From positions 1 to 24,134 of the IMG/VR virus record IMGVR_UViG_3300042309_002026: 24,134 nt of DNA. The stretch is one strand, 5' to 3'. This document shows, piece after piece, positions 2,372-9,550 of this stretch. The position numbers were made by a program, and so were the translations under genes. How positions within the stretch are numbered: the stretch's first letter is position 1; each line of letters begins with the position of its first letter. A model generated the notes under the pieces. That model was not told the DNA's origin. It saw only the letters and a list, made by a program, of their open reading frames with translations, and ran no database searches. The DNA comes from a virus.

Positions 2372-2572
2372 CTATTGTCTTTCTTGCTCAATCAGCCAGT
2401 CTTTCAACTCTGCAACGTAGGCCCTGAGCGCAGCAGCTTTCTGCTCATGCCACGTAAGTCCAGTTTGTAAGTACAAGGCAGTGTGATTGTCAATGGCACG
2501 GAGGCATTGATAAATGCAGGCGTTCCATGGCTCCCTAAGGGGAGTATTGAAAGTGCGCCTTTCGGAAGTCAC
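2372..2572 (-). CDS. Hypothetical protein (66 aa), coupled to phosphoesterase
   Basis: Starts with GTG at 2572-2570, overlapping the TGA of the upstream metallophosphoesterase gene (GTGA). That is the reason for choosing this start. The predicted protein is small and helical, with aromatic residues (WNACIYQCL, LTWHEQKAA) and a charged C-terminus (LIEQERQ). No family is recognised. It is the third gene of the HU-like / phosphoesterase / 66-aa operon, so it may act in the same process, but nothing in the sequence says how. Confidence 0.7.
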   Translation of the reverse strand: MTSERRTFNTPLREPWNACIYQCLRAIDNHTALYLQTGLTWHEQKAAALRAYVAELKDWLIEQERQ

Positions 2573-3087
2573 TGCCCAAAGTAAGCCCTGATCTTCTCCA
2601 ATGGTACAGGAGCGAAATCGTTACGCTCTAGGCAGCTATTAAAAAACCGCCTGTCCACTTGCCCATCGTCCGTGTAAACCAAATGGCCATGCAAGTGGCC
2701 GTGTACGTTGCCGACGTAACGCCCAGACAGGTTGCATGGATGCACGGGAATATGCGTATAGATCAAGCCTTCACGAAAGAATGCTCCGCGAATGTCATGG
2801 AAATACGGCAAGTAGTCCTGAAGACGGTAAATGTCGTGATTCCCGCGCACCAATACCTTGCTCCCATTAAACCGATCTAGGAGCTTTAGCGCTGAACGGG
2901 GGATTGCCACGTCGCCCAAGATGTAAATGCGATCCTTTGCGTTGACCATTTTGTTCCAGCGATCAATCAAGGTTTCGTGCATTTCCTCAAGTGAAGAAAA
3001 CGGGCGCACCGGAGATCCGTCAGGATTGATAAACTCAAGAATCTTGGAATGGCCTAGATGAAGGTCTGATGTGACGAAAGCGCTCAT
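2569..3087 (-). CDS. Metallophosphoesterase (calcineurin-like)
   Basis: A 172-aa calcineurin-like phosphoesterase with the family metal-binding motifs in order: SDLHLGH (D8, H10), GDVA (D59), GNHD (N83-H84), THIP (H112) and GNVHGHLHGH (H129, H131). The family hydrolyses phosphomono- or diesters with a dinuclear metal centre; phage members are often annotated only generically and the substrate is unknown. The start ATG overlaps the TGA of the upstream HU-like gene (ATGA, 3084-3087), and its own stop overlaps the GTG of the next gene. Coupling to a DNA-binding protein suggests a nucleic-acid or nucleotide substrate, which is inference only. Confidence 0.9.
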   Translation of the reverse strand: MSAFVTSDLHLGHSKILEFINPDGSPVRPFSSLEEMHETLIDRWNKMVNAKDRIYILGDVAIPRSALKLLDRFNGSKVLVRGNHDIYRLQDYLPYFHDIRGAFFREGLIYTHIPVHPCNLSGRYVGNVHGHLHGHLVYTDDGQVDRRFFNSCLERNDFAPVPLEKIRAYFGQ

Positions 3088-3392
3088 GGCAGCTTGCTAG
3101 AGAATTTGTAACGGCCTCCGTTCATGCGTTTAATGAACTCCCTGCTAGGAATGAAGGATGGCACCACATGCGCGGGCACTTTGATGACGCGTCTTGTGAC
3201 GGGCAGTTCGTACTGCCTTGGTTGATGAAGGCGAGGAACGAACGAGCCAAAGCCAGGGAGGCTTACGCGGAACTCTCTGTTTATCATTGCCTCAACGATC
3301 ACTTCAAAGAACGTGTCAGTGATCAAGATGGCACGATGGTAGGGGATGTCGCATCTTGCAGCGACGAGGGCAGCCACTCTTGTCCTGTTCAT
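3084..3392 (-). CDS. HU/IHF-family DNA-binding protein
   Basis: A 102-aa protein from ATG 3392 (MNRTRVAALVAARCDIPYHR). The frame continues upstream but would run into the tRNA-like element at 3426-3506, so this Met is chosen. It has the HU layout: an N-terminal helical dimerisation part, the hallmark LPGFGSFVPR (residues 45-54, compare HU LRGFGTF) and a basic arm region (QYELPVTRRVIKVPAH) before a final helix (SREFIKRMNGG). HU-like proteins bend and compact DNA and support replication, recombination or packaging. It is the first gene of a coupled three-gene operon directly downstream of the structured RNA region. Confidence 0.8.
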   Translation of the reverse strand: MNRTRVAALVAARCDIPYHRAILITDTFFEVIVEAMINREFRVSLPGFGSFVPRLHQPRQYELPVTRRVIKVPAHVVPSFIPSREFIKRMNGGRYKFSSKLP

Positions 3393-3425
3393 GAGGATGC
3401 GCGAGGTGGTGCCACTATACCAGAA

Positions 3426-3506
3426 GGGGAAAGGACGGAATCGAACCATCTACACCAAAGAGGTTTAGCCCCTTTAGTAGCCAGAGCCCGGTCTGGCATC
3501 TTTCCC
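3426..3506 (-). tRNA. tRNA-like gene A (isotype not assignable)
   Basis: Reading leftward, GGGAAAG (3506-3500) pairs perfectly with CTTTCCC (3433-3427), directly joined to a T-arm GATGG-TTCGATT-CCGTC (3450-3434). A D-arm GCCAG-ACCGGGCT-CTGGC (3497-3480) lies in the right place. The anticodon arm is abnormal: the canonical position pairs ACTAA with TTGGT around a 15-base loop, which itself folds into a hairpin with CTAAA at the tip. Reading the tip as TAA would give a Leu anticodon but with C at position 33. Position 8 is A rather than the conserved T, and CCA is not encoded. It could be a degenerate tRNA, a tRNA with an inserted anticodon loop, or a tRNA mimic. Confidence 0.5.
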
Positions 3507-3543
3507 AAAGGCCCCAGGGTTGCGCATCGTTGAGAGGCGTAGG

Positions 3544-3800
3544 GGCGCTACAGGAGGCGATCAACCCTCCTGGCCTGCCGAAGCAGGACTTGAGGCCCGA
3601 TGCCGAAGCAGAGCGGGGGCGAGGGCGGGTAGCCCGAAAGTGGCAATTTGAAATTACCGGACAGGCATCCACCCCCATTTCCGACGTTTGCTAGGTTTTC
3701 CGGTTGCAACGTTGGCCAACTCCCCGGAAACCGCCTTGCTGCTAGAGCAAGGGCTTGCGACAGTACCGACAGGCAAGCCCGTCGCATCTGTCGCTTGAAA
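3544..3800 (-). ncRNA. Putative structured RNA domain with pseudoknot
   Basis: No convincing protein frame, but dense complementary arms if transcribed leftward: 3788-3794 with 3757-3763 (7 bp), interleaved with 3774-3780 and 3751-3757 (7 bp), which is an H-type pseudoknot pattern sharing one base; CCTTGCT/AGCAAGG (3734-3740/3746-3752); TTTCCGG/CCGGAAA (3697-3703/3724-3730); CCTGC-UUCG-GCAGG (3587-3574); and CAGGAGG/CCTCCTG (3551-3557/3566-3572). UUCG tetraloops favour the leftward strand. The domain sits between the two tRNA-like elements. Large phage RNAs such as GOLLD are known next to or enclosing tRNAs; similarity here is only in context and was not tested. Confidence 0.45.
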
Positions 3801-3810
3801 CTATAGCACA

Positions 3811-3911
3811 AAGCCCAGGAGGGACTTGAACCCCCATCGCTATCAGCACTTCCACTAGCGTCCTAGGGAGAGGCGCTGACGCCGCCCTGTCCAATTGGTT
3901 CGCACTGGGCT
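3811..3911 (-). tRNA. tRNA-like gene B (long; isotype not assignable)
   Basis: Reading leftward, AGCCCAG (3911-3905) pairs with CTGGGCT (3818-3812), stacked directly on a T-arm GGGGG-TTCAAGT-CCCTC (3835-3819). This acceptor/T-arm unit is fully tRNA-like. At about 101 bases it is longer than normal class I or II tRNAs. The D-stem is weak, around AACCAATTGG. At the anticodon-stem position GCGTC pairs with GACGC around a 15-base loop containing CCCTAGGA; reading TAG would be a Leu anticodon with C at position 33. A second pairing CGCTA/TAGCG overlaps it and could form a long variable arm. CCA is not encoded. It may be a divergent Leu/Ser-type tRNA, a pseudo-tRNA or a domain of a larger RNA. Confidence 0.45.
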
Positions 3912-3915
3912 GGAA

Positions 3916-3933
3916 GCCCTGCCGGGGCAGGGC
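3916..3933. other. Strong hairpin between NrdB stop and RNA region
   Basis: GCCCTGC (3916-3922) and GCAGGGC (3927-3933) form a perfect 7-bp stem with a 4-base loop, just downstream of the NrdB stop and at the 5' border of tRNA-like element B. No T-tract follows on either strand, so it is more likely an RNA structural or processing element than a factor-independent terminator. Confidence 0.4.
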
Positions 3934-3947
3934 ATAGGCATAAACAA

Positions 3948-4688
3948 TTAAGCAGAATAATCTGGGAGTGAAGTATTCGGGCTCTCGAAAAAGCTAATCG
4001 CTCGACTATTTTTAGTGGCCGAAAGTTCAGGGGCCTTCCCTGTCCAGAATAGCGAACGAGATTGACGCAGCCAAAAGTCTTTATTTAGCCATTGATTAGA
4101 TGAAGCGCCAAGATCATCAAACAGCCATGCAACAGTGGCAGCACGAAGTTTGTCAAGACTTTGGCTCTCTTCCTCTCCCAGTTCCTTGCTCACCATGGCG
4201 TTCACCACTGTGTGAACCCTTTCATCTCTACTTATATCTTGCGAGACGGTGCGCATACCCACGTCGCCCGTCTGTCTGAAAAACGGAAGCGCTACGAAGA
4301 AAATGGAGCGCTCCATGATGCCTGCCTTGAGAATCGGGTGGGCAGGGTGCTCGTTCCATGCCCTCAGGATGCTCAGCACTTCATGCTCTGCTTTTTCGTT
4401 GGTGCCATGGGCAGTAGCCACATAGTCAAGAGCCTCTAGGTGACGATCTTCGTCATCCTGATTGGAGCGCAGTGTTTCAATAAGACCAGGTGTGCTGGGC
4501 AGTTCCCTCTTCATGCCTTCCTCAAGCAACTCCTTCACAGGAATCTCAAGGTGACGCAGCGCCAGAGCCTTGAGCAGGGTGCTTTCAGCGCCCTCCGTCA
4601 CTTGCCCTTTGGCAACGGCCACAGGCTGCCATGCGCGTTTCTTAGATAGAACATTCAGATAGGGGCTGTTTTTGATGGTGGCAATCAT
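3948..4688 (-). CDS. nrdB: Ribonucleotide reductase class I beta subunit (compact NrdB-like)
   Basis: A 246-aa ferritin-like protein; ATG 4688 (MIATIKNSPYLN) is chosen because the upstream extension crosses the terminator at 4699-4723. It shows the NrdB metal-site pattern: E80xxH83 (EDRH), E126 (MERS) and E156xxH159 (ERVH), with a candidate first carboxylate near residue 48. The position of the radical tyrosine in E. coli NrdB (four residues after the first His) is Leu87; the nearest Tyr is Y89. Beta subunits generate the radical used by NrdA. It directly follows the alpha-subunit gene, supporting a class I pair. Cyanopodovirus NrdB proteins of the Cyano SP type are also reported to lack the radical Tyr. 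It is shorter than typical NrdB (about 320-380 aa). Confidence 0.75.
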   Translation of the reverse strand: MIATIKNSPYLNVLSKKRAWQPVAVAKGQVTEGAESTLLKALALRHLEIPVKELLEEGMKRELPSTPGLIETLRSNQDDEDRHLEALDYVATAHGTNEKAEHEVLSILRAWNEHPAHPILKAGIMERSIFFVALPFFRQTGDVGMRTVSQDISRDERVHTVVNAMVSKELGEEESQSLDKLRAATVAWLFDDLGASSNQWLNKDFWLRQSRSLFWTGKAPELSATKNSRAISFFESPNTSLPDYSA

Positions 4689-4698
4689 GGTTCGTGCA

Positions 4699-4723
4699 GA
4701 AAATAAAGGGCCGCGAACGGCCC
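4699..4723 (-). terminator. Terminator/leader hairpin between nrdA and nrdB
   Basis: Leftward, GGGCCG-TTCG-CGGCCC (4723-4708) is a perfect stem with a UUCG tetraloop followed by TTTATTTT. It lies between the nrdA stop (4751) and the nrdB ATG (4688). It may partly terminate and so lower nrdB relative to nrdA, or stabilise the transcript end. Confidence 0.75.
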
Positions 4724-4750
4724 ATAGAGGAAATGCGATGGAAAAGAGCG

Positions 4751-6220
4751 CTATTCGGCGCAACTGGAGCAAAATCCTGCGCTTAGATCACAGGCTGCAG
4801 ACTGTTCAGGAGCTTCTTCGTCAAAACCAAACATGCTCTTGAAATCATCATCCAGTGCGGCATAGGCATCATCTTTCCGCTGCATGTCAGGCATGACCTG
4901 CAGGGAATAGTAGAGGCTTGTCTGAGGCGATTCTAGCCAAGCCTTGAGGAAGTCACGGTCATAGGAAACTAAATCTCCCCAAGAGTTAATCGAATAGCCA
5001 TGGAATAGCCCAGTATTTTGATACAGCTTGACAATGCCATTTACCACCTTAAAGAAAGTGTCCCAGCCCACTTCTGCGGCAATCTCTACATCACCATAAT
5101 CAAAGCTCTCCACGCCAAAAGTGCCAGAGTCACGATCAACGAGGCGACCAATGGGAGGAGCAATTTCAGGGGCAGTGGTGAAGCCCTTGGAATCAAGATA
5201 GCGATAGGAACAGGAGGCCGTAGGAGCGATGCAAAAGGCGCGTTCCATGCCATGGGCGCGTGCCACTTCGGCGGCGGCCTCAATGGCAGTATCAAGGGCC
5301 ACCACAACGTCACCGGCCTTTGTTTCGCACCAATAATCCCATTCCTCGGTGCAAAGAGTATAGCTTTCCAGAGTTTCCCCGAAATCCCGATAGGAAATGC
5401 CGTGAATTGACAAGAAGTTTGCCAAACCAAGAATGCCAAGGCCCACTTGTTTATCAATGGAAGGAGGTAGATATTCGCCAGTGTCGCCCACGCCAGTATT
5501 TGGATGGAGGGCACAAAGCTGCTCCATGCCTTCAACAAAAGCACCTTGAAGATCATCAATTTCGCAAGCACCAAGATTGACATGTTGGAGTAGACAAGTG
5601 CCGCGATGCGGAAGATACACTTCAAGACAAACATTGGCGTAGATACGCTCGCCTTTTGCGTTGTAGCGAATCTTGTTAAGCCAAATGTCGCCAGAGCTAA
5701 TGCCTTTCAGAAGAGCATCAAGCACCTTGGGGCTGATTTTGTCAAGGAAGTCTTCATCTACATCGACACATCTTTTTACCCATGGCAGCTCAGTGCGAGG
5801 CGCATCAAGAAAGCCTGGCTCATATCGACCATTGATTATTTTTCCCAAAATGTCAGGATGGTCGTAATCAAGATGGAGAGTAACGGCGCCATTTTTGAAA
5901 ACGCCGCCACGGCGCAGCACTTCGTTCAGTTTGCTGTAGATACCAGAAAAACTTACGGGACCACTAGCAATCAAGCCCTTGTCGTTGCTTTCCCCCTTGG
6001 GGCGTAGCTTTGAAAGATGGATTGACGCACCAGCCGCGTTGCGCAGTGCATGGGAGGTAAATTGCCAAGAAGCCTCAATACCATCAGGCCCTTCCATTGA
6101 ATCTTCCACGACGAACGTGGTACAGCTCACCGCAAGGCGACCATCAGGAGAGTCGAGCCAGTCTTGCACCCTGCCAGTGCGAGCAATCTTTTCAAACCTT
6201 GCTTTTTCCTTGAGCTTCAT
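4751..6220 (-). CDS. nrdA: Ribonucleotide reductase class I alpha subunit (compact NrdA-like)
   Basis: Reduces ribonucleotides to deoxyribonucleotides for phage DNA synthesis. The 489 residues contain a first redox Cys (AVSCTTF, C33), the catalytic NxCxE motif (N196, C198, E200), the phosphate-binding loop PTASC (333-337), a tyrosine dyad (LYY, Y437-Y438) matching the class I radical-transfer pair, and a C-terminal CSSC (484-487) for reductant exchange. The usual CNLG cysteine is replaced by Val (HVNLG, 214-218), with C209 and C219 nearby. The protein is far shorter than cellular NrdA (about 700-850 aa) and lacks an ATP cone. Such proteins in cyanophages were often called class II (NrdJ); the Tyr dyad and adjacent NrdB favour class I. 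Confidence 0.88.
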   Translation of the reverse strand: MKLKEKARFEKIARTGRVQDWLDSPDGRLAVSCTTFVVEDSMEGPDGIEASWQFTSHALRNAAGASIHLSKLRPKGESNDKGLIASGPVSFSGIYSKLNEVLRRGGVFKNGAVTLHLDYDHPDILGKIINGRYEPGFLDAPRTELPWVKRCVDVDEDFLDKISPKVLDALLKGISSGDIWLNKIRYNAKGERIYANVCLEVYLPHRGTCLLQHVNLGACEIDDLQGAFVEGMEQLCALHPNTGVGDTGEYLPPSIDKQVGLGILGLANFLSIHGISYRDFGETLESYTLCTEEWDYWCETKAGDVVVALDTAIEAAAEVARAHGMERAFCIAPTASCSYRYLDSKGFTTAPEIAPPIGRLVDRDSGTFGVESFDYGDVEIAAEVGWDTFFKVVNGIVKLYQNTGLFHGYSINSWGDLVSYDRDFLKAWLESPQTSLYYSLQVMPDMQRKDDAYAALDDDFKSMFGFDEEAPEQSAACDLSAGFCSSCAE

Positions 6221-6546: not shown

Positions 6547-6819
6547 CTACTTGCGCCTAAAACGGTGGAGAGAGCAAGTGCCGCCGTAGCCGTAGCCGTA
6601 GCCGTGGCCGTGGCCGTAGCCGGAGCCGTGGCCGTAGCCGTAGCCGTCGCCGTGGCCGTAGCCGTCGCCGTGGCCGTAGCCGGAGCCGTGGCCGTAGCCG
6701 TGGCCGTAGCCGTAGCCGTCGCCGTGGCCGTAGCCGGAGCCGTGGCCGTAGCCGGAGCCGTGGCCGTAGCCGTAGCCGGAGCCGTCGCCGTAGCCTACGG
6801 GACGAAATATAGCGGTCAT
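6547..6819 (-). CDS. Gly-X dipeptide repeat protein (Gly/Tyr/His-rich)
   Basis: A 90-aa protein: an 8-residue head (MTAIFRPV), 35 uninterrupted Gly-X dipeptides where X is only Tyr, His, Asp or Ser, then a basic tail (GTCSLHRFRRK). The start is set by TGATG overlap with the upstream gene (TGA 6821-6819, ATG 6819-6817), arguing that it is translated. Every Gly codon is GGC and X codons are TAC, CAC, GAC or TCC, so the DNA is a 6-base-period repeat. It resembles low-complexity GYG-type adhesive, structural or condensate-forming sequences; alternating His/Asp could bind metal. No family is assigned. The reverse strand is also open (Val-Ala repeats), but that is a by-product. Confidence 0.7.
   Translation of the reverse strand: MTAIFRPVGYGDGSGYGYGHGSGYGHGSGYGHGDGYGYGHGYGHGSGYGHGDGYGHGDGYGYGHGSGYGHGHGYGYGYGGTCSLHRFRRK
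6586..6797. repeat. Tandem repeat, 6-base period (GCCGTR-type)
   Basis: About 210 bases of degenerate 6-mers (GCCGTA, GCCGTG, GCCGGA, GCCGTC on the + strand) that encode the Gly-X array. Gain or loss of units keeps the frame, so length variation between related phages is expected. Such repeats are also prone to assembly error. Confidence 0.9.
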
Positions 6820-7139
6820 CACAGCCCCCAGTTGTCGCTTACCGGCACGCAAAAAATCTCTGCGCCTTCAGGCATGTCCACGTCCGCCATCGGGCGAATA
6901 TCAGCCTTGCTCGGGTCTTCAATGACCTTGGCAAAGCCGCAGCTTTCCCAACGAAACACCCACACAGCACGACTGATCCTGATGCGGCCATTCTCACGGG
7001 TGATGTCACCAGCAAAAATCCAACCACGATCAACAACAATTACAGCGCGGTTGCCATTGGGTTTGGCTGCAGGAATAGAATCGGCCCTGACGTATTCCAC
7101 GCCATTAACAGAGATGGAGGACAGTTCAGCGGAAGTCAT
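6819..7139 (-). CDS. Conserved phage-type hypothetical (106 aa; possibly DUF6948-like)
   Basis: Starts at ATG 7139 (MTSAELSSISVNGVEYV), chosen over an upstream in-frame start because of composition and a pyrimidine-rich leader. The protein appears beta-rich: VNGVEYVRADSI near the N-terminus, a central AVIVVDRGWIFAGDITR (about residues 32-48), and it ends PVSDNWGL. The VDRGW-F-GD pattern with a terminal WGL recalls a family of small phage proteins I believe is DUF6948, recalled and not tested. It is coupled by 1-base overlap to the Gly-X protein gene. Function unknown. Confidence 0.7.
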   Translation of the reverse strand: MTSAELSSISVNGVEYVRADSIPAAKPNGNRAVIVVDRGWIFAGDITRENGRIRISRAVWVFRWESCGFAKVIEDPSKADIRPMADVDMPEGAEIFCVPVSDNWGL

Positions 7140-8656: not shown

Positions 8657-9550
8657 TCAGGCTAGAACGTCCTCGATGAACGCTTTAGCAGAGGCCATGC
8701 TTTCCTGGTTGCGCAGGAACGTGCCATTCACGCCGTCCATCAGCAACAATCCCCAGCTTTTGCGCCATGATTCTTGAAAGCTGGCCAATGGGGAAAAGAG
8801 CGGACGGTCGTGGTCGCTATCACGAATGGCAGGCCCCTTGAACCACGGCACGTCTCTAGTGGAGCCCTCTGGAAGGATGAAATCAGCGCCAGTGCCTCCC
8901 ATCCATGTTTCTTGCCTCCCATTGGACGGTCTGATGCCCCTGGCATAACTTACGCCAACGGGCTTGTCAGTCCACTTCTTAATCCACTTCACCACTTGCC
9001 TTTGGAACCATGGCACGCTGCTGCCCATCAGCTCATTGCCCACTTCATACATCACATTGTCATGCTTCTCCAGTGTTTGCACTACTCTCTTTACGTGAGC
9101 ACGTTGGTATTTGTTCCACTTGCCTTTGGTATGCACTTCATCATGATCTTTTGGCCCTAGCCCATTGAAAGGATGGTTCTCCCAGGCTTGATCAAAAATG
9201 TCTTGAATGGAGCCTTCAAACAAGCTGACCATAGTGATCATGTCGCGCTTGTCTGCTCGCTTCACTGCTTTGCCAAGGTTGTCATAGTACGCAGGGTTGA
9301 GGCTGCCGTCTTTCTTCCATGGCACATTGTCCACTTTGATGAAGCCGGGAGTGTTAGAGCCCCAGAGGCTATTGCTTGCTACAAGCCCTTTTGTTTCAAT
9401 GGTCCAGAGCTTAGTGAAATTGCCAGTGATCTTATCAAGCCCTATACGTTCGCCTGCCATTGGCTGAACAGTGTTCCACGTGTGGCTGCCTGCTAAGCGA
9501 ATGGGACGCCCTTTCCATTGGAACTGATCGCCTTTGATGGTGATTGCCAT
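8657..9550 (-). CDS. Glycoside hydrolase-like TIM-barrel protein (clan GH-A-like)
   Basis: A 297-aa protein resembling GH5-like enzymes: an N-terminal strand FQWKGRPIRLAGSHTW (about 10-25) of the type common in these hydrolases, a central DMITMVSLFEGS (103-114), and VMYEVGNELMG (167-177) with the Asn-Glu pair (N172-E173) expected at the end of strand 4 as acid/base. A nucleophile is less clear; E260 is a candidate. It has no signal peptide. A phage enzyme of this kind could be a depolymerase on a virion or act on host polysaccharide. The start ATG 9550 follows a pyrimidine-rich leader. Substrate unknown. Confidence 0.75.
   Translation of the reverse strand: MAITIKGDQFQWKGRPIRLAGSHTWNTVQPMAGERIGLDKITGNFTKLWTIETKGLVASNSLWGSNTPGFIKVDNVPWKKDGSLNPAYYDNLGKAVKRADKRDMITMVSLFEGSIQDIFDQAWENHPFNGLGPKDHDEVHTKGKWNKYQRAHVKRVVQTLEKHDNVMYEVGNELMGSSVPWFQRQVVKWIKKWTDKPVGVSYARGIRPSNGRQETWMGGTGADFILPEGSTRDVPWFKGPAIRDSDHDRPLFSPLASFQESWRKSWGLLLMDGVNGTFLRNQESMASAKAFIEDVLA

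What the first reader, a model, noticed from the sequence alone, without database searches (positions are those of the whole stretch)
3426..3935. Two unusual tRNA-like folds around a pseudoknotted RNA domain
Both elements have perfect 7-bp acceptor stems stacked on T-arms, but each has a 15-base loop at the anticodon position instead of 7. The 250 bases between contain an interleaved pseudoknot, UUCG-capped hairpins and several 7-bp stems, with no credible protein. This may be a single large RNA with tRNA-like domains, an RNA of the GOLLD kind (known in freshwater metagenomes and phages near tRNAs), or tRNAs with inserts.
Basis: partly seen in the sequence, partly recalled or inferred. Interest (0 to 1): 0.65.

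Follow-up and report, generated by a model that had tools for sequence, protein, structure and literature searches.

The report
Phage antitoxin-RNA mimic before tRNA-like element
A freshwater cyanobacterial virus carries, tucked between two tRNA-shaped RNAs, a copy of the small RNA that bacteria use to keep their own virus-triggered toxin AbiF in check, but without the toxin gene, so it probably disarms that defence during infection; the same toxin-less arrangement recurs in many unrelated phages.

Summary
The two tRNA-like folds are real (3911-3812 and 3506-3427, minus strand): perfect 7-bp acceptors on T-arms. The "15-base anticodon loops" are not; both arms are long helices. abiF RNAs are the antitoxins of AbiF, a HEPN-nuclease toxin related to Cas13. 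Relatives of this S-CBS4-like cyanophage keep the hairpin in the same gap, with varied stems, an unchanged core, and a tRNA or tRNA-like fold right after it. In a wider viral sample, 39 of 98 abiF hairpins abut a tRNA-like fold (1.1% at random positions). No AbiF gene was found in any of 100 virus records, 8 of them whole named genomes; a positive control rang. The likely host family (Cyanobiaceae) carries AbiF with its RNA, near-identical to that of cyanophage relatives outside the apical loop. Best reading: an orphan phage antitoxin mimic, trimmed at its 3' end by RNase P at the tRNA-like element. GOLLD, tmRNA and RNase P RNA are not supported. Binding, neutralisation and expression are untested. 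abiF in a cyanophage (S-CREM1) was already published, without function.

The parts
3510..3546 (-). abiF RNA (RF03085), orphan antitoxin-like hairpin; conserved core CCTCTCAACGATGC at 3537-3524
   Evidence: 44.5 bits vs gathering 37, model 1-37/37, E 2.5e-5 over the window and 8.2e-7 over the region; core invariant and stems covarying in relatives
3427..3506 (-). tRNA-like element 2: 7-bp acceptor, T-arm, 11-bp arm in place of an anticodon arm; starts 3 nt after the abiF match; proposed RNase P substrate
   Evidence: a tRNA or tRNA-like fold directly after abiF in relatives
3812..3911 (-). tRNA-like element 1: 7-bp acceptor, T-arm, long two-part arm in place of an anticodon arm
   Evidence: 6 sequences, 4 double changes in the long arm
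3574..3587 (-). hairpin A (CCTGC-TTCG-GCAGG), conserved upstream of abiF
   Evidence: 40/40 cells paired in 8 distinct sequences, 2 compensatory pairs; the shuffle maximum also reaches 100%, so support is modest
3551..3572 (-). hairpin B (CAGGAGG...CCTCCTG), conserved upstream of abiF
   Evidence: 45/48 cells paired in 7 distinct sequences, 3 compensatory pairs; modest excess over shuffles
3800..3808 (-). extended -10 promoter-like site TGCTATAGT, 3 nt after element 1
   Evidence: only two TGNTATAGT sites in the window (expected 0.24), each just 3' of a tRNA-like element
3414..3422 (-). extended -10 promoter-like site TGGTATAGT, 4 nt after element 2, before the HU-like gene
3948..4772 (-). ribonucleotide reductase class Ia beta subunit (upstream flank)
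   Evidence: phrog_6799 E 1.8e-104
3084..3392 (-). HU-like DNA-binding protein (downstream flank; likely start ATG 3392, not 3449 inside the tRNA-like fold)
   Evidence: PF00216 E 9.7e-13; the phrog_379 match begins at residue 18 of the longer ORF
2569..3087 (-). phosphoesterase (downstream flank, used to find relatives)
   Evidence: phrog_547 E 4.3e-43; synteny

Best explanation
The locus makes a phage-encoded, toxin-less copy of the AbiF antitoxin RNA. During infection the abiF hairpin is proposed to bind host AbiF (a HEPN-domain ribonuclease toxin) and keep it inactive, so that the infected cell does not shut down. The RNA is read from the minus strand as part of a precursor; host RNase P cuts at the 5' end of tRNA-like element 2, which sets the 3' end of the antitoxin just after its stem; tRNA-like element 1 may mark the other side through 3' tRNA processing. 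SHOWN HERE (by computation): the abiF family match, its conservation and covariation, its position just before a tRNA-like fold, no AbiF gene in the phages sampled, AbiF plus its RNA in the presumed host family, and the near-identity of host hairpins and those of cyanophage relatives outside the apical loop. INFERRED: transcription, RNase P cleavage, binding to AbiF, neutralisation, benefit to the phage.
For: abiF above the curated score over its full length. Kept in the same RNR-beta/phosphoesterase gap across diverged relatives (RNR beta as low as 55% identical), core unchanged, stems changed. Inner closing pair at a fixed offset from the core: 94 of 102 distinct viral hairpins form a standard pair, with TA, AT, CG and GC all seen. 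39 of 98 hairpins with enough flank have a tRNA-like fold starting 3-9 nt downstream versus 1.1% at random positions in the same loci; the Rfam match ends 4-5 nt before a real tRNA in S-CREM1, S-SZBM1 and S-SRM01. The partner tRNA changes (Ile, Gly, Ala, Arg, Leu, degenerate folds) while the junction stays. Abi_2 (PF07751): 0 in the window record, 0 of 8 whole named phage genomes, 0 of 45 and 0 of 46 further viral records; control phage phiC2 rings at 7.8e-51. Presumed host family: Abi_2 in 13 of 400 genomes, an abiF-like RNA just upstream of it in G190, G242, G392, G282 and G153; the G153 protein matches the solved AbiF 8VZ6 at 1.1e-23. Host ACACCCCCTAGGCCTCT[loop]ATGCCCAAACCTGGGGGTCACT versus cyanophage ACACCCCCTAAGCCTCT[CAACG]ATGCTCAAACCTGGGGGTCACT: 37 of 39 positions equal, the two differences compensating each other (G-C to A-U). 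abiF RNA works in trans and depends on its stem, not on the stem's sequence (PMC12373285). Phage mimicry of an antitoxin RNA is proven for ToxIN (PMC3475682).
Against: No expression, binding or protection data exist for this RNA. AbiF is uncommon in the presumed host family (13 of 400), the host was inferred from phage similarity only, and the host RNAs have a longer apical loop than the phage core and score below the Rfam cut-off (30-34 bits). The window's own stem is less host-like than that of its relatives. The C. difficile antitoxin carries two motifs; one 37-nt hairpin may not suffice. Most viral records are fragments, so an AbiF gene elsewhere in this phage cannot be excluded. The 14-base search pattern fixed the core, so its invariance in the wider sample is partly imposed.
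Confidence: 0.6

Rival explanations
1. The abiF hairpin is a processing or insulation element for phage tRNAs: a stable 5' leader hairpin that shields the tRNA from upstream sequence, with no link to AbiF in these phages.
For: Tight, constant spacing to tRNA starts.
Against: Many viral copies have no tRNA nearby: several end in an intrinsic-terminator-like T run, and in T7-like Aeromonas phages the hairpin sits just after a T7-type promoter in the leader of the capsid-assembly gene. A mere leader hairpin would not need the antitoxin core. In cyanophage relatives the hairpin resembles the host antitoxin in stem and tail.
Confidence: 0.15
2. Remnant of a complete AbiF toxin-antitoxin module once carried by the phage; the RNA lingers without function.
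For: Some prophages carry complete AbiF systems (PMC12373285).
Against: Core unchanged and stems compensated over large divergence; present in several unrelated phage groups, S-CREM1 among them described as lytic, none with Abi_2.
Confidence: 0.08
3. The phage does have a toxin partner that PF07751 does not recognise, so this is a complete type III system working for the phage.
For: Absence was tested with one profile only; the window record is a fragment.
Against: Eight whole named genomes and 91 further records without a match, while the positive control and 13 host genomes match strongly; the gene after the RNA differs between relatives (HU-like, phosphoesterase, others).
Confidence: 0.07
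4. A single large ornate RNA of the GOLLD or ROOL kind with tRNA-like domains.
For: Phage location near tRNA-like folds; several stable stems.
Against: No GOLLD or ROOL match at E up to 10; the spacer is the variable part: from element 1 to abiF it is about 100 to 360 nt in relatives and largely replaced in L169, whereas abiF and the junction stay.
Confidence: 0.04

Closest known systems
abiF RNA (RF03085), antitoxin of the AbiF/Abi_2 system (C. difficile RCd22, PMC12373285; PbAbiF complex 8VZ6)
   Same: Same hairpin, core and stem logic; full-length match above the curated score.
   Different: No toxin gene with it; a tRNA-like fold follows instead; single motif rather than the two of RCd22.
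abiF sRNA of cyanophage S-CREM1 (PMC9964418)
   Same: Also in a cyanophage, also 4 nt before a tRNA (tRNA-Gly), no AbiF gene.
   Different: Published as an Rfam annotation without function or note of the tRNA junction; different phage group (T4-like myovirus).
Pseudo-ToxI of phage PhiTE (PMC3475682)
   Same: Phage RNA that copies a host type III antitoxin and lacks the toxin.
   Different: Other toxin family (ToxN), repeat array, proven by experiment; here only predicted.
RNA anti-CRISPRs, Racrs (PMC10651486)
   Same: Solitary phage copy of a host defence RNA, away from its protein partner.
   Different: Mimics CRISPR repeats, not a toxin-antitoxin RNA; tested experimentally.
MALAT1-mascRNA (general knowledge, not looked up)
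   Same: A tRNA-like fold serves as an RNase P signal that makes the 3' end of an upstream non-coding RNA.
   Different: Animal nuclear RNA; here the cleavage is only inferred. A 17.9-bit mascRNA match to element 1 is far below its cut-off.
GOLLD RNA
   Same: Large phage RNA near tRNAs.
   Different: No family match.

Membership tests
abiF RNA (RF03085) | Covariance-model score at or above the curated cut-off, full length | tested here: met
   44.5 vs 37 bits, 1-37/37
abiF RNA (RF03085) | Two-part stem with conserved CUCUCAACGAU loop, stems kept by compensation | tested here: met
   94 of 102 inner pairs standard with four Watson-Crick types; compensatory changes in 8 of 10 pairs over 81 distinct hairpins, though the outer stem was chosen for pairing
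abiF RNA (RF03085) | Expressed as RNA | not testable with these tools
   No RNA-seq; only a promoter-like TGCTATAGT at 3808-3800
Type III toxin-antitoxin system AbiF | Abi_2/AbiF toxin gene with the RNA | tested here: not met
   No PF07751 match in the record or in 99 other viral records; the record is a fragment
Phage RNA antitoxin mimic (pseudo-ToxI kind) | Sequence resembles the antitoxin of a host toxin | tested here: met
   Cyanophage relatives vs Cyanobiaceae AbiF RNA: 37 of 39 positions outside the apical loop; the window's own stem is less alike
Phage RNA antitoxin mimic (pseudo-ToxI kind) | Neutralises the host toxin in infection | not testable with these tools
   Needs bench work
tRNA | Acceptor stem and T-arm | tested here: met
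   7/7 and 5/5 pairs in both elements
tRNA | Anticodon arm with 7-nt loop | tested here: not met
   11-bp arm with 5-nt loop in element 2; long two-part arm in element 1; RF00005 does not reach its cut-off in the window
GOLLD / ROOL / tmRNA / RNase P RNA | Rfam model match | tested here: not met
   No match at E up to 10 in 3300-4100; no tmRNA by ARAGORN
RNase P substrate | Cleavage at the 5' end of the acceptor stem | not testable with these tools
   Acceptor plus T-arm present; cleavage inferred

The most novel reading that the evidence does not exclude
A widespread, undescribed class of RNA-based counter-defence: many phages carry solitary AbiF-antitoxin RNAs, often placed directly at the 5' end of a tRNA or tRNA-like fold so that RNase P releases them, in a single transcript that supplies both an antidote to AbiF and a tRNA.
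Probability: 0.45. Interest if true: 0.85.

Novelty: new variant of a known kind. Interest (0 to 1): 0.72.

Why it matters
AbiF is proposed as the ancestor of the Cas13 nuclease, and none of the papers found here says how phages resist it. If solitary abiF RNAs are phage antidotes, they would be a further family of RNA antitoxin mimics after pseudo-ToxI, found in cyanophages, mycobacteriophages and T7-like phages alike, and directly testable with a 37-base RNA. The tRNA junction would also show how a phage can borrow the host's tRNA-processing enzymes to trim a regulatory RNA.

Tried and rejected
(1) GOLLD, ROOL, tmRNA, RNase P RNA: no Rfam match at E up to 10. (2) Lactococcal phage sk1, whose DNA was reported to protect phage 712 from AbiF (title cited in PMC12737573): no abiF match in sk1 or 712, so that case is not explained by this RNA. 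(3) Exact 27-base copy of the cyanophage hairpin in bacterial genomes: none among GTDB species. (4) The exact core in 400 Cyanobiaceae genomes: two hits in closely similar, coding-like sequence, with no hairpin, tRNA or AbiF context, taken as chance. (5) DNA similarity of the region to named phages: none. (6) S-CBS4, the nearest named phage, lacks the core. (7) Covariation of the acceptor and T-arm of element 1 is uninformative because they hardly vary. (8) Known defence-system proteins in the window: only a DNA methyltransferase matches. (9) My first register for the upstream hairpin of the tRNA-Arg group was one base off and was redone.

Full report
WHAT IS THERE. The window is a 24,134-base viral record from IMG/VR. 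Its large terminase is 57% and its ribonucleotide reductase beta subunit 63% identical to Synechococcus phage S-CBS4, so it is an S-CBS4-like cyanophage; the host is inferred, not known. The flagged region lies on the minus strand between the RNR beta gene (4772-3948) and an HU-like gene whose likely start is 3392.

CHECK OF THE OBSERVATION. Both tRNA-like folds exist, at 3911-3812 and 3506-3427, with perfect acceptor stems and T-arms. The claimed 15-base anticodon loops do not hold up. Element 2 has an 11-bp arm closed by 5 bases, with all 29 pairs of the fold kept in three distinct sequences and two double changes; element 1 has a long two-part arm, recovered within a cloverleaf by RNAalifold over six sequences with four double changes. 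ARAGORN finds only a poor tRNA-Gly(ccc) in another register. They are tRNA-like, not decoding tRNAs. The UUCG hairpin (3587-3574) is real and conserved; I did not test the pseudoknot.

THE MISSED ELEMENT. Rfam's only match above a curated score in the window is abiF (RF03085) at 3546-3510, full length, 44.5 bits against a cut-off of 37. Its inner stem is CGC/GCG where the consensus has AGC/GCU. It ends three bases (UUU) before element 2. abiF RNAs are the antitoxins of AbiF, a HEPN ribonuclease toxin that cuts single-stranded RNA and is related to Cas13 (PMC12373285, PMC12737573, PMC12165695). The C. difficile RNA acts in trans, and its activity depends on the stem but not on the stem's sequence.

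RELATIVES. Using RNR beta and phosphoesterase as anchors, the abiF core was found in the same gap in 16 distinct relatives and confirmed above the cut-off by Rfam in those checked. In each the hairpin is followed within a few bases by a tRNA or a tRNA-like fold: tRNA-Ile(GAU) in L124, L129 and L159, degenerate folds in the others. S-CBS4 itself lacks it. Two hairpins upstream (A and B) are also conserved with some compensatory changes; this support is modest.

WIDER SAMPLE. After adding the relatives and named phages, 102 of 128 distinct cases form the two-part hairpin. The inner pair, at a fixed offset and so not chosen by me, is standard in 94 of 102, as TA, AT, CG, GC or GT. The outer stem was chosen for pairing, so its compensated pairs lean towards the structure. 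Of 98 hairpins with enough flank, 39 have a tRNA-like fold starting 3-9 nt downstream; random positions in the same loci give 1.1%, and a few more tRNAs escape the descriptor. A few have a tRNA just upstream instead. Many others end in a T run like an intrinsic terminator. In the Aeromonas T7-like phages T7-Ah and PZL-Ah8 the hairpin follows a T7-type promoter (CTATAGGGA) in the leader of the capsid-assembly gene. S-CREM1, S-SZBM1 and S-SRM01 carry it 4-5 nt before a tRNA; the S-CREM1 copy was already annotated in PMC9964418 as an sRNA not seen before in cyanophages, with no function assigned.

NO TOXIN. PF07751 (Abi_2) has no match in this record, in eight complete named phages, or in 45 plus 46 further viral records with the motif. 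The control phage phiC2, which carries AbiF, scores 7.8e-51. Most of the viral records are fragments, so absence is firm only for the complete genomes.

THE TARGET. In the family of a Cyanobium genome, 13 of 400 genomes have Abi_2. An abiF-like RNA lies just upstream of the gene in G190, G242, G392 and G282 and in G153. The G153 protein matches the solved AbiF 8VZ6 at 1.1e-23, although its open frame may be cut short at the C-terminus. These RNAs score 30-34 bits, below the cut-off, because their apical loop is longer. Outside that loop, the host (G153) hairpin and that of cyanophages (L138, L159, L052, S-SZBM1) agree at 37 of 39 positions, including the tail UCACU, and the two differences compensate each other. 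After that tail the host has the AbiF gene leader and the phage has a tRNA. The window's own stem is less alike.

MECHANISM. The simplest reading is an antitoxin mimic: the phage supplies the inhibitor of a host abortive-infection toxin. The tRNA-like fold directly after it offers an RNase P site that would cut at 3507/3506 and free the RNA's 3' end; acceptor plus T-arm is the minimal known RNase P substrate (general knowledge). Each tRNA-like fold is followed at once by an extended -10 site, TGNTATAGT, the only two in the window against 0.24 expected, which suggests that the RNA could start near 3795. Transcription, cleavage, binding and benefit are inferences. Phage mimicry of a type III antitoxin is proven for ToxIN (PMC3475682), and solitary mimic RNAs for CRISPR (PMC10651486).

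VERDICT. A member of the abiF RNA family by its defining model; not a toxin-antitoxin system, since no toxin was found; not tRNAs; not GOLLD. The new part is the toxin-less, tRNA-coupled arrangement across many phages. My literature search was limited to open papers, so earlier notice of it elsewhere cannot be excluded.

Noticed in passing
L006, L010, L017, L023, L027, L039, L049, L050, L061, L072, L077, L081, L088, L091, L097, L103, L108, L114, L185: 19 of 29 distinct tRNAs abutting a viral abiF hairpin are tRNA-Arg(UCU), against 13 tRNA-Arg of any kind among 233 other tRNAs on those loci; the tRNA sequences are diverse (median identity 62%). Shared ancestry of the junction or a link to AbiF's target are both open.
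   Followed up: partly
same tRNA-Arg group, about 59 bases upstream of the core: A -10-like box at a mostly fixed distance (-59/-60) and a hairpin with a GGUCCAAAC loop whose 5-bp stem covaries (59 of 60 cells paired, shuffles 74%, at most 88%) precede abiF.
   Followed up: partly
L187 and related mycobacteriophages (Thibault, LittleE, Baka and others): An unannotated abiF RNA, 54.9 bits in Thibault, not next to a tRNA and without Abi_2 in the Thibault genome.
   Followed up: no
L189, L191: T7-like Aeromonas phages place an abiF hairpin just after a T7-type promoter in the leader of the capsid-assembly gene.
   Followed up: no
window 3414-3422 and 3800-3808: The only two TGNTATAGT sites of the window sit directly 3' of the two tRNA-like folds.
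   Followed up: partly
window 6547-6852, minus strand: A glycine-tyrosine repeat ORF (GYGHGSGYGHGDGYG...) in the list of ORFs, nature unknown.
   Followed up: no
window 8657-9550, minus strand: Weak cellulase-family (GH5) match, E 8.5e-4, just under the Pfam cut-off.
   Followed up: no
L122, L019, L138, L132, L155: The tRNA-like fold after abiF in these relatives is only about 63-66 nt and seems to lack a D-arm.
   Followed up: no
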